Assembly: GCA_030018135.1 (NCBI GenBank)
Contig: JASEGJ010000013.1
Location: 1-28,025, forward strand
Length of the DNA stretch: 28,025 nucleotides
Reading direction: 5' to 3'
Source: Candidatus Hodarchaeaceae archaeon
Lineage (GTDB): Archaea; Hadarchaeota; Hadarchaeia; Hadarchaeales; Hadarchaeaceae
The position numbers and the translations under genes are program-made. The notes beneath the pieces are model-generated. The model was not told the DNA's origin. It saw nothing but the letters and a program-made list of their open reading frames with translations, and ran no database searches. Numbering within the stretch: position 1 is the first letter of the stretch; each line of letters begins with the position of its first letter. Shown here in pieces: positions 4,202 to 15,664 of the stretch.

Positions 4202-4204
4202 TGG

Positions 4205-4325
4205 TGCGGGGGAGGGGATTTGAACCCCTGAAAGCCCTGCGGCTACAGGATCTCCCAGCTCAGCTCTTAAGTTTAGCAGCGGTGCCTCCGCCCCTGCCCT
4301 TTAGGCCGAGCTCAGGCACCCCCGC
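4205..4325 (-). tRNA. tRNA-Leu(UAA), apparently with two introns
   Basis: The acceptor stem GCGGGGG (4319-4325) pairs with CCCCCGC (4206-4212). The discriminator is A, and CCA is encoded at 4202-4204. The T arm is AGGGG-TTCAAAT-CCCCT (4213-4229), and a long variable arm has stem AGCC/GGCT, so this is a class II tRNA. At 121 nt it is 34 nt longer than expected. Removing 20 nt (4273-4292, after tRNA position 30) and 14 nt (4252-4265, between positions 37 and 38) leaves an anticodon arm CAGGA-CTTAAGA-TCCTG, fully paired and with the classic Leu UAA loop, in an 87-nt tRNA. A single-intron reading would give anticodon GGA with C33, which disagrees with discriminator A and the Leu-type acceptor stem. 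A TATA-like GCTTTAT lies about 26 nt upstream. Exact splice sites need confirmation. Confidence 0.85.
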
Positions 4326-4340: not shown

Positions 4341-4356
4341 GGGCGGGGGAATAAAG

Positions 4357-4464
4357 CTAACCCCGGCGCTTCCTGTGCGCCCTGCGGTAGACCGCGCGGA
4401 ACTTCCTGCGCTTCTTCCGCAGCTTGCGCTCCAGCTCCCCCTCAAGCTCTAGCGGCATGGACAT
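4357..4464 (-). CDS. 35-residue very basic ORF
   Basis: ATG at 4464 opens a 35-codon frame: an acidic start (MSMPLELEGELE) followed by a strongly basic tail (RKLRKKRRKFRAVYRRAH then RKRRG) that reaches TAG at 4357. A GTG directly before the ATG is an alternative start. Two stop codons lie just upstream in frame, so the gene cannot be much longer. A TATA-like ATATAAAC lies about 35 nt upstream, a spacing that suits a nearly leaderless transcript. The composition resembles very small ribosomal proteins or RNA/DNA-binding peptides, but I do not recognise it as L41e or another known protein. It runs toward tRNA-Leu on the same strand. Its G+C-rich, basic codons might be chance, so confidence is limited. 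Confidence 0.45.
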   Translation of the reverse strand: MSMPLELEGELERKLRKKRRKFRAVYRRAHRKRRG

Positions 4465-5441: not shown

Positions 5442-5526
5442 CGGGCCCGCGGGGATTCGAACCCCGGATTTGCAGCTTTCCCCAAGGATAGGAGGCTGCT
5501 GCCTTATCCAACTTGGCCACGGGCCC
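5442..5526 (-). tRNA. tRNA-Arg(CCU) with a short intron
   Basis: The acceptor GGGCCCG (5520-5526) pairs with CGGGCCC (5443-5449). The discriminator is G and CCA is encoded (5439-5441). The T arm is CGGGG-TTCGAAT-CCCCG. Anticodon stem GCAGC/GCTGC encloses 18 nt instead of 7. Removing 11 nt (5478-5488) after the purine at position 37 leaves the loop CTCCTAA with anticodon CCU, the canonical archaeal intron position and a normal 74-nt tRNA. A TATA-like TTTATGA complement lies about 24 nt upstream. Eleven nucleotides is near the lower limit for archaeal introns. Confidence 0.92.
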
Positions 5527-13189: not shown

Positions 13190-15664
13190 ATGGGGGAAAT
13201 TAACGTAGCAATCGCAGGAGTCGGCAATTGTGCGTCCTCGCTGGTCCAAGGTATCGAGTGCTACAGGGAGGCAAGGGAGGACCAATTCATCCCGGGCTTG
13301 ATGCACGTCAACTTAGGCGGCTACCACATCCGCGATGTCAAATTCGTTGCGGCGTTCGATGTGGACGCGAACAAGGTCGGCAGGGATCTAGCTGAGGCAA
13401 TATTTACCCCGCCAAATTGCACGGTCAAATTCAGCGATGTTCCAAAGCTTGGGGTGGAGGTTGTAAAAGGGCCGGTCCTAGACGGCCTCGGCAAGTACCT
13501 CAAAAGCGTGATACCCCTCGACAGAACGCAGGAGGCGGTAGATGTGGCTCAAGTCCTCAAAGATGCGCGCGCGGACGTGCTGGTGAGTTACCTGCCCGTT
13601 GGTAGTTATGAGGCCTCGCGCCACTACGCGCAGCAGGCCATCAAGGCGGGGTGCGGCTTCATCAATTGCATCCCTGAGTTCATAGTTTCTAGCAAAGAAT
13701 GGGGGAAGCGCTTCACCGACGCAGGGCTGCCCTGCGCTGGCGACGACATAAAATCGCAGGTTGGGGCGACGATTCTTCACCGAACCCTCGCGAGGTTGCT
13801 GATCGACCGGGGCGTCAAGCTTGAGGAGAGCTATCAGCTCAACATCGGGGGAAACAGCGTCACGGGCGATGAGGAAATTTTGCTTGAAGTAGACGGCGCC
13901 CTGAATAGAACTAGGATCGGGGATTTTATCGACAAAATGATGGAAAAGTACGGTTTTGTGCAGGAGGGAGGGAAAGAGGTTTTAGAAACAAACAAGATGA
14001 AAGAAAAAATAAGATGCTTCACGATCAACGATGACTACAAGCTGATGTTAGCTCCGGTGACCAAGCTTATCCGTCACAAAATTGATGAATCACTTTTTGA
14101 GGTAACACTTGCAAAAGGCAATCGAATCAAAATCACAGGCGATCATAATTTATTCACCTTGGATGAAGATGGGAATCTCAAATCAATACCCGTGAAAGAG
14201 CTCAAACAAGGGCAGACTTTTATCGCCATACCAACCACCCTCTCGCCAGGCGAGGAGCTTTCGCACATAGATTTAACTTCACGCTTTAGCGACACGTGGG
14301 CGGCAAAGGTTGGCGATGGAGAATTTCTAAAAACCCACAATCATCCCGAGATCAGGATACCGGTTAAGTTCCCCGTTTCGAAGGAATTCCTCGATGTAAT
14401 TGGCCTCTGGCTAGCAGATGGTTCCTTTGATAGAAGTGGCAGCTCTAACTTGGAAATAGCCGTTGGGGATGAACCGGAATGTTTAGACGTTATAACCCGA
14501 TGGACAGGGGAATTTAACATCCGATGTGAACGCAGAGGGAAAGGTGGGGTCGCGGTACGAATACATTCAAAGACATTGGCATCTATAGCTAAGAAAATTT
14601 TTAGGTTATCTGGGAATTGTTATACCAAGCGGGTCCCAGGGTGGGTGTTTAACCTATCCGAAAAGCAAATTTGTGAGGTTTTGAAGGGTTACTTTAGTGG
14701 TGACGGCTGTGTTATAGGAAACCAAATCAGGTGGACATCTACGTCCTCTGGATTGGTAAGAGACATCCAGACTTTACTTTTACAGGTTGGGATCCATTCA
14801 ACGGTTTTTAAAGAAAACAAACGTGGATCGAAAACATCATACCGTTCAACAGCACCGTTCTGGCATGGTATCATCTCATCAAAGGAGGCACTTGGGGCAT
14901 TTCTGGAAAAAGTTGGATTCCTCCAGTCACGCAAGAATGAGATGGTCAAAAAAGTAGTTCAGAGGAGAAAATTTGAGAAGTCCTTCATCCCAAAGATTCG
15001 TCTAATAGAAGAGTCGGGGATCGAGCCAACTACTACACGAGATTTGCCAGCGATTGAAAAGAGAACAATCCTGTCCCAGCTCGACTGTGTGAAGGATAAA
15101 TCGATCAGTGAAAAACTCAAAAAACTCTGCACCGGAGAAATAGAATTTGTAAAAGTCAAGAACATTAAGAAGCTCGAGCTCGAACCACAATATGTCTACG
15201 ATTTGAGCGTCGAACATTATGAAAGGTTCATCTGCTCCAACATCTTAGTACACAACACCGACTTCCTAAATATGCTCGAGGAGGAGCGGCTGAGCTCGAA
15301 GCGCATAAGCAAGACGGAAGCGGTGGCAAGTCAGGTGCCCTACGAGGTGCCGCTCCGGATCGGCCCCAGCGACTACGTGTCATTCCTGAAGGACAACAAG
15401 ATATGCTACATCCACATGCGCGGCAGAAAGTTTGGTGACGTTCCGCTGACCATCGATGTCAAGCTCTCGGTTGAGGACTCGCCAAACAGCGCCGGCGTTG
15501 TGATCGATGCAATACGCGCGGTGAAGCTCGCGCTCGACCGCGGCATCGGCGGGCCGCTCATCGGCGTCTCCGCATACTTCTTTAAGCATCCACCGATACA
15601 GATGTCCGATGTCGAGGCCAAGCAGGCGGTTGAGGATTTCATATCCGGCAGAGGGGAGCGATAA
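13190..15664 (+). CDS. ino1: Myo-inositol-1-phosphate synthase with an intein
   Basis: The frame codes for 824 residues: 357 of host protein (222 before and 135 after) and a 467-residue intein. The enzyme converts glucose-6-phosphate to inositol-1-phosphate with NAD. The NAD-binding motif [15 protein letters not shown] is at residues 8-22. The conserved GGN-TDFLNM is interrupted between N222 and T690 (frame numbering). The catalytic lysine region is [16 protein letters not shown]. Without the intein, the length agrees with archaeal and actinobacterial synthases (360-390 residues). It starts 91 bp from the divergent padR gene and is followed 2 bp after its stop by a PfkB kinase, with which it surely forms an operon. 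The product should feed archaetidylinositol or di-inositol-phosphate synthesis. Activity requires splicing. Confidence 0.96.
13856..15256 (+). mobile_element. LAGLIDADG homing-endonuclease intein in Ino1
   Basis: The 467-residue intein begins with Ser223 ([12 protein letters not shown], block A). Block B is KITGDHNLF, with the TxxH-like histidine. Two endonuclease motifs follow, [14 protein letters not shown] and [12 protein letters not shown]. Block F is [14 protein letters not shown], and the end is ILVH-N689 before Thr690. All residues needed for splicing (Ser1, block-B His, penultimate His, terminal Asn, +1 Thr) are present, and both endonuclease aspartates are intact, so the element may still be mobile. 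Its DNA is more A+T-rich than the flanking exteins, suggesting arrival by transfer. It sits in the most conserved part of the host enzyme, as inteins usually do. Confidence 0.95.

What the first reader, a model, noticed from the sequence alone, without database searches (positions are those of the whole stretch)
4205..4325. tRNA-Leu(UAA) interrupted by two introns, one at an unusual site
The gene is 34 nt too long. One canonical intron cannot explain it: that would give anticodon GGA with C33 on a tRNA with a Leu acceptor and discriminator A. Removing 20 nt after position 30 and 14 nt after position 37 restores a fully paired anticodon stem around the classic CTTAAGA loop. Double introns, with one inside the anticodon stem, are rare outside Thermoproteota.
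Basis: partly seen in the sequence, partly recalled or inferred. Interest (0 to 1): 0.62.

Follow-up and report, generated by a model that had tools for sequence, protein, structure and literature searches.

The report
Twice-interrupted leucine tRNA gene, Hadarchaeon
A leucine transfer-RNA gene in an uncultured subsurface archaeon is broken by two tiny removable inserts, one at a known but unusual place; the gene kind is known, but its genome is packed with such inserts although it seems to own only the simple form of the cutting enzyme thought unable to handle many of them.

Summary
The finding holds. On the minus strand (4325..4205) lies the genome's only detectable tRNA-Leu(UAA). A 20-nt intron sits at 30/31 (4292..4273) and a 14-nt intron at 37/38 (4265..4252). 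Removing them gives an 87-nt tRNA with anticodon arm CAGGA-CTTAAGA-TCCTG. The strongest evidence is comparative: of 18 orthologues in Hadarchaeales, 11 are intronless with exactly this junction, 4 have only the 37/38 intron, and 3 (three genera) have both introns at the same sites. Both introns form bulge-helix-bulge motifs. The second motif gains its outer helix only after the first intron is gone, which predicts ordered splicing. Double introns and position 30/31 are already published, so the gene is a new member of a known kind. The context is more interesting: about 23 of 33 recognised tRNA genes here appear interrupted; among 18 checked against intronless relatives, 17 introns are non-canonical and 6 canonical. 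Yet only one, alpha-type, splicing-endonuclease gene is detectable, without the Crenarchaea-specific loop. The literature links intron diversity to two-subunit or loop-bearing enzymes, with Korarchaeum cited as the only alpha2 exception. No RNA data were available; cleavage and enzyme specificity are inferred.

The parts
4205..4325 (-). tRNA-Leu(UAA) gene, two introns
   Evidence: only Leu(UAA) match in the assembly
4293..4325 (-). exon 1, tRNA positions 1-30
   Evidence: colinear with intronless orthologues
4273..4292 (-). intron 1, 20 nt (GGCGGAGGCACCGCTGCTAA), between positions 30 and 31, in the anticodon stem
   Evidence: absent from 15 of 18 orthologues, present at the same site in G001 and G002; BHB: central helix GGCA/UGCU, bulges GG|G and AA|A, inner helix GCGG/CCGC, outer AAG/CUU
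4266..4272 (-). exon 2, ACTTAAG, positions 31-37 with anticodon UAA
   Evidence: invariant in orthologues
4252..4265 (-). intron 2, 14 nt (AGCTGAGCTGGGAG), canonical position 37/38
   Evidence: BHB: central helix CUUA/UGGG, bulges AG|A and AG|A, inner helix GC/GC; orthologous introns TAGG, TAAG, TAAG, TGAG keep pairing with CUUA
4205..4251 (-). exon 3, positions 38-73 with long variable arm (16 nt), T arm, acceptor and A73
4202..4204 (-). genome-encoded CCA
   Evidence: sequence
4349..4360 (-). conserved promoter-like box (TTAGCTTTATTC, relatives TAGTTTTATTGC), 35 to 24 nt upstream
   Evidence: aligned upstream regions; promoter role inferred
4305..4312 (-). D-loop AGCTCGGC, complementary over 8 nt to intron 2 (4264..4257)
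   Evidence: 8 of 8 pairs in all three two-intron genes, 7, 6 and 5 of 8 in one-intron genes; suggestive only

Best explanation
The gene encodes the leucine tRNA that reads UUA (and perhaps UUG). Its transcript carries two archaeal bulge-helix-bulge (BHB) introns. In the unspliced transcript, the end of the D arm (AAG-GGCA) pairs with intron 1 and the anticodon loop, forming a complete BHB at 30/31; in that state the 37/38 motif has only one outer pair. Splicing endonuclease EndA would cut at 30/31 first and RtcB would rejoin the ends. The anticodon stem can then close, completing the 37/38 BHB (outer helix 1 -> 6 pairs), and a second cut and ligation give the 87-nt tRNA-Leu(UAA). Shown: the gene, both introns by homology to intronless relatives, both motifs, one detectable EndA gene and one RtcB gene. 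Inferred: transcription, the order of removal, cleavage by this EndA, joining by RtcB.
For: 18 orthologues in Hadarchaeales: 11 intronless (one truncated at its 3' end), 4 with only a 37/38 intron (G005, G009, G019, G022), 3 with both (G000, G001, G002), all giving the same UAA loop. Solver optimum and BHB geometry; shuffle controls. Compensated variation in the 37/38 central helix (TGGG, TAGG, TAAG, TGAG against CUUA); a six-sequence fold without intron 1 shows the anticodon stem and part of the 37/38 motif. Order: the 37/38 motif has h=1 before and h=6 after removal of intron 1. Machinery: EndA gene, RtcB. Only Leu(UAA) copy found. Conserved upstream box. The same 30/31 + 37/38 pair in Thr(UGU) of this genome.
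Against: No RNA evidence. Unconstrained folding of the G000 intermediate prefers a D-loop/intron-2 helix over the canonical 37/38 BHB, though the six-sequence consensus fold supports the anticodon stem. In G001 the 30/31 central helix has one mismatch (3 of 4). The assembly is a 93%-complete draft, so another gene copy could lie in a gap.
Confidence: 0.93

Rival explanations
1. A single canonical intron of 34 nt in a Ser-like (GGA) tRNA.
Against: Gives C33 and a Ser anticodon on a Leu acceptor with A73. A dedicated Ser(GGA) gene probably exists (L044). Intronless orthologues show CAGGACTTAAGATCCTG.
Confidence: 0.02
2. A decayed pseudogene or disrupted attachment-site copy with random insertions.
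For: Standard tRNA finders miss it; 3' tRNA fragments do occur elsewhere in this genome.
Against: It is the only Leu(UAA) copy found; all stems are intact; insertions at the same two sites with BHB-compatible sequence occur in three genera; the upstream box is conserved.
Confidence: 0.02
3. Two introns, with the first junction one nucleotide later (31/32), giving a G31-U39 pair.
For: In G000 alone a one-base slide still yields a paired stem (sequence).
Against: The intronless orthologues have A31; the slide gives U31-U39 in G001; the BHB register fits 30/31.
Confidence: 0.03

Closest known systems
Archaeal BHB tRNA introns at non-canonical positions (Thermoproteales and others; reviewed in PMC4090602, PMC8450103)
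   Same: Short introns bounded by BHB motifs; 30/31 is a listed position; a non-canonical intron may accompany a canonical one in the same gene; the tRNAscan-SE 2.0 paper describes introns so close that one must be removed before the next motif forms.
   Different: Host is a Hadarchaeon with one detectable alpha-type endonuclease rather than an (alpha-beta)2 or loop-bearing enzyme.
Split tRNA-Lys(CUU) at 30/31 of Nanoarchaeum equitans and some Staphylothermus (PMC4090602)
   Same: Same junction, 30/31.
   Different: There two genes are trans-spliced; here the interruption is a 20-nt cis intron in a leucine gene.
Multi-intron tRNA genes of Methanopyrus, Methanothermobacter, Korarchaeum and ARMAN (PMC4033280) and of Asgard Atabeyarchaeia/Freyarchaeia (PMC11291895)
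   Same: Multiple introns outside Thermoproteota.
   Different: Of these, Korarchaeum is described as the only alpha2-enzyme archaeon with non-canonical introns, and its enzyme has the specific loop; the Hadarchaeal enzyme lacks a CSL-length loop.
alpha4-type EndA of Methanocaldococcus jannaschii (PDB 1a79)
   Same: Single gene of about 180 aa, near end-to-end alignment, same catalytic Tyr/His/Lys motifs.
   Different: alpha4 and alpha2 enzymes are described as cutting only canonical BHB motifs (PMC4033280); this genome carries many non-canonical introns.

Membership tests
Archaeal BHB tRNA intron | Removal restores a complete cloverleaf and a plausible anticodon | tested here: met
Archaeal BHB tRNA intron | Two 3-nt bulges around a 4-bp helix, with flanking helices, at the junctions | tested here: met
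   30/31 complete in the precursor; 37/38 complete after intron 1 is removed
Archaeal BHB tRNA intron | Excised by EndA and exons joined by RtcB | not testable with these tools
   Genes present; activity needs RNA or enzyme assays
Non-canonical tRNA intron (other than 37/38) | Junction elsewhere than 37/38 | tested here: met
   30/31, fixed by orthologues that lack this intron
tRNA-Leu(UAA) | Leu acceptor, A73, long variable arm, UAA anticodon, U33 | tested here: met
   orthologues in the order
alpha4-type EndA | One gene of about 180 aa with the catalytic Tyr/His/Lys, no second subunit | tested here: met
   the same search finds two genes in G027 and a fused protein in G030
alpha4-type EndA | Homotetramer | not testable with these tools
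   inferred from size and gene number only; a divergent or unassembled second subunit is not excluded
Loop-bearing (CSL/ASL) EndA | Extra loop with conserved Lys near the active site | tested here: not met
   about 9 residues of the A. pernix CSL, including K44, are missing; the corresponding short stretch (GKPLSGGKLQL) is nearly the same in intron-poor relatives. ASL equivalence of K35 is not excluded
Group I/II intron | Catalytic core of hundreds of nt | tested here: not met
   introns of 20 and 14 nt

The most novel reading that the evidence does not exclude
In this Hadarchaeal lineage a single alpha-type EndA without the Crenarchaea-specific loop excises many introns at non-canonical sites, several with relaxed motifs. 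That would break the rule tying intron diversity to (alpha-beta)2 or loop-bearing enzymes. In the two-intron leucine precursor, intron 2 may also pair with the D loop and extend the outer helix of the 30/31 motif, helping to set the order of splicing.
Probability: 0.5. Interest if true: 0.66.

Novelty: new member of a known kind. Interest (0 to 1): 0.48.

Why it matters
The gene is one well-resolved case of ordered double splicing, with intronless, one-intron and two-intron orthologues inside one archaeal order, a natural series for intron gain and loss. More broadly, the host genome is very intron-rich for a lineage outside the Thermoproteota/Nanoarchaeota/Asgard groups known for this. By available evidence it has only the simple alpha-type endonuclease. 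Whether that enzyme cuts non-canonical and relaxed motifs is directly testable and bears on the accepted enzyme-intron coevolution scheme. The two general tRNA searches used here missed this gene, so tRNA sets of such genomes are easily under-counted.

Tried and rejected
ARAGORN and Rfam RF00005 do not report the gene properly. One-intron and Ser(GGA) readings and a 31/32 junction were rejected by orthologues and scoring. An EndA tree could not resolve the order of intron gain (11 of 12 inner branches open), so whether the 37/38 intron is ancestral with losses or was gained repeatedly stays open. Plain folding of the G000 precursor shows outer and central helices of the 30/31 motif but not a clean 37/38 motif. 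I compared the 30/31 introns of Leu, Thr and Met by eye and saw no convincing similarity that would suggest transposition. Marck and Grosjean 2003 and Sugahara 2007 are not held. The held papers that match Hadarchaeota or Hadesarchaea with tRNA or splicing terms do not, by title, abstract or the passages read, describe Hadarchaeal tRNA introns; subscription papers were not searchable.

Full report
Observation. The minus strand 4325..4205 reads as a tRNA interrupted in its anticodon arm. ARAGORN and Rfam at its cut-off list only two other tRNAs in the window. The genome (G000; 1.11 Mb, 45 contigs, 93% complete) shows one full match to this gene; its other matches are partial and fall on other Leu tRNA genes or a 3' fragment.

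Comparative proof. A DNA search of relatives brought orthologues of 121, 101 and 87 nt. A second search for the diagnostic 5' end across the order brought the total to 18. Eleven have no intron (G003, truncated at its 3' end, G004, G006, G007, G012, G013, G014, G017, G020, G021, G023), with the arm CAGGA-CTTAAGA-TCCTG. Four have only a 37/38 intron (G005, G009, G022 with 14 nt; G019 with 17 nt). Three genera (G000, G001, G002) have both a 20-nt intron at 30/31 and a 14-nt intron at 37/38. The junctions are thus fixed by homology, independently of any motif. A slide of the first junction by one base would give U31-U39 in G001.

Motifs. My solver enumerates intron removals with BHB geometry and scores the resulting cloverleaf; it puts the 30/31 + 37/38 reading first for all three double genes. 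At 30/31: outer helix AAG/CUU, central GGCA/UGCU, inner GCGG/CCGC, bulges GG|G and AA|A. At 37/38: anticodon stem as outer helix, central CUUA/UGGG, inner GC/GC, bulges AG|A and AG|A. In relatives the central strand of intron 2 is TAGG, TAAG, TAAG and TGAG, always pairing with CUUA (G022 has 3 of 4). Shuffling intron 1 never reproduced its motif in 100,000 trials; shuffling intron 2 did in 0.46%. The outer helix of the 37/38 motif is 1 pair before and 6 pairs after removal of intron 1, hence the predicted order. RNAalifold on six sequences without intron 1 gives the anticodon stem and part of the motif.

Wider genome. Running the solver on 33 recognised tRNA genes of G000 suggests introns in 23, at least six of them with two. 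Positions are provisional by a nucleotide or two in some cases, and L040, L044, the Pro-like gene in L021 and Met L005 are not well resolved. For 18 of the interrupted genes the spliced product matches an intronless tRNA of a relative with the same anticodon at 81-99% identity with 0-3 gaps; in these I count 17 non-canonical and 6 canonical introns. By the solver's criteria about 7 of the 17 have complete motifs and about 10 relaxed ones. As a measure that does not use the solver, RF00005 matches longer than 88 nt are 16 of 28 over-cut-off matches in G000, 17 of 42 in G001, 9 of 44 in G020 and 5 of 47 in G007. Intron richness therefore differs strongly within one order.

Enzyme. PF01974 finds one endonuclease gene in G000, with an ATG-started frame of 179 aa. 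It aligns nearly end to end with M. jannaschii EndA (1a79) and lacks about nine residues of the A. pernix Crenarchaea-specific loop, including K44. At E up to 10, eight order genomes at least 90% complete each show one gene, apart from one 11.6-bit noise match in G012. The same search finds two genes in G027 and a fused protein in G030, so it can detect second subunits, though a very divergent one could escape. The loop region is nearly the same in intron-rich and intron-poor genera. RtcB is present.

Lineage.

What is known. Position 30/31 is listed among non-canonical sites, and Euryarchaeota with alpha4/alpha2 enzymes are described as having only single canonical introns (PMC4090602). Non-canonical introns are nevertheless noted in three thermophilic methanogens (PMC3218864), multi-intron genes in Methanopyrus, Methanothermobacter, Korarchaeum and ARMAN, and Korarchaeum as the only alpha2 case (PMC4033280). 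Loops CSL and ASL are held to explain broad specificity (PMC6379350, PMC12397907). Asgard genomes with 92-95% interrupted tRNA genes exist (PMC11291895). Introns so close that one must go before the next motif forms are described with tRNAscan-SE 2.0 (PMC8450103).

A side observation. In the three double genes intron 2 is complementary over 8 nt to the D loop, with two compensated differences; in one-intron genes the match is 7, 6 and 5 of 8. The predicted helix extends the outer helix of the 30/31 motif. With three sequences, and flanking bases already fixed by the BHB and the D arm, this is a lead, not a result.

Verdict. The gene is a new member of a known kind; the intron load of its genome beside a single alpha-type enzyme is the part a specialist would want tested.

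Noticed in passing
G000 genome, loci L001-L058: About 23 of 33 recognised tRNA genes appear interrupted, including D-arm introns in all three Gly tRNAs, and double introns in Thr(UGU), Lys(CUU), Arg(GCG) and a Met-type CAU tRNA (9/10 + 30/31).
   Followed up: partly
window 4305-4312 and 4257-4264, minus strand: D loop and intron 2 are complementary over 8 nt, with compensated differences among the three two-intron genes; possible splint for the 30/31 motif.
   Followed up: partly
window 4357-4464, minus strand: Small basic ORF (35 aa, MSMPLELEGELERKLRKKRRKFRAVYRRAHRKRRG) directly upstream of the tRNA; similar C-termini precede the tRNA in at least seven relatives, the stop lying at the promoter-like box.
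   Followed up: partly
L025 about 1645-1672 (G000:C40), also L055 and L054: 3' tRNA fragments with acceptor end and CCA and no recognisable 5' half: one like the Leu(UAA) 3' end beside Leu(CAG), one Gly-like, one Arg-like; possible attachment-site remnants or split/large-intron genes.
   Followed up: no
window 5442-5526, minus strand: tRNA-Arg(CCU) with an 11-nt insertion at 37/38, reported by ARAGORN as tRNA-??? with a four-base anticodon.
   Followed up: partly
window 13190-15664, plus strand: Inositol-1-phosphate synthase-like ORF of 824 aa that appears to hold an intein (my reading of the translation).
   Followed up: no
G000:C11:68229-70859 (L191, L192): The RtcB match is split by about 1.4 kb (profile 23-50, then 49-426) in an 874-aa frame, suggesting an intein or insertion.
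   Followed up: no
L040 (181 nt, G000:C10): tRNA-like gene with a very long interrupted middle that the solver could not resolve, perhaps three introns.
   Followed up: no
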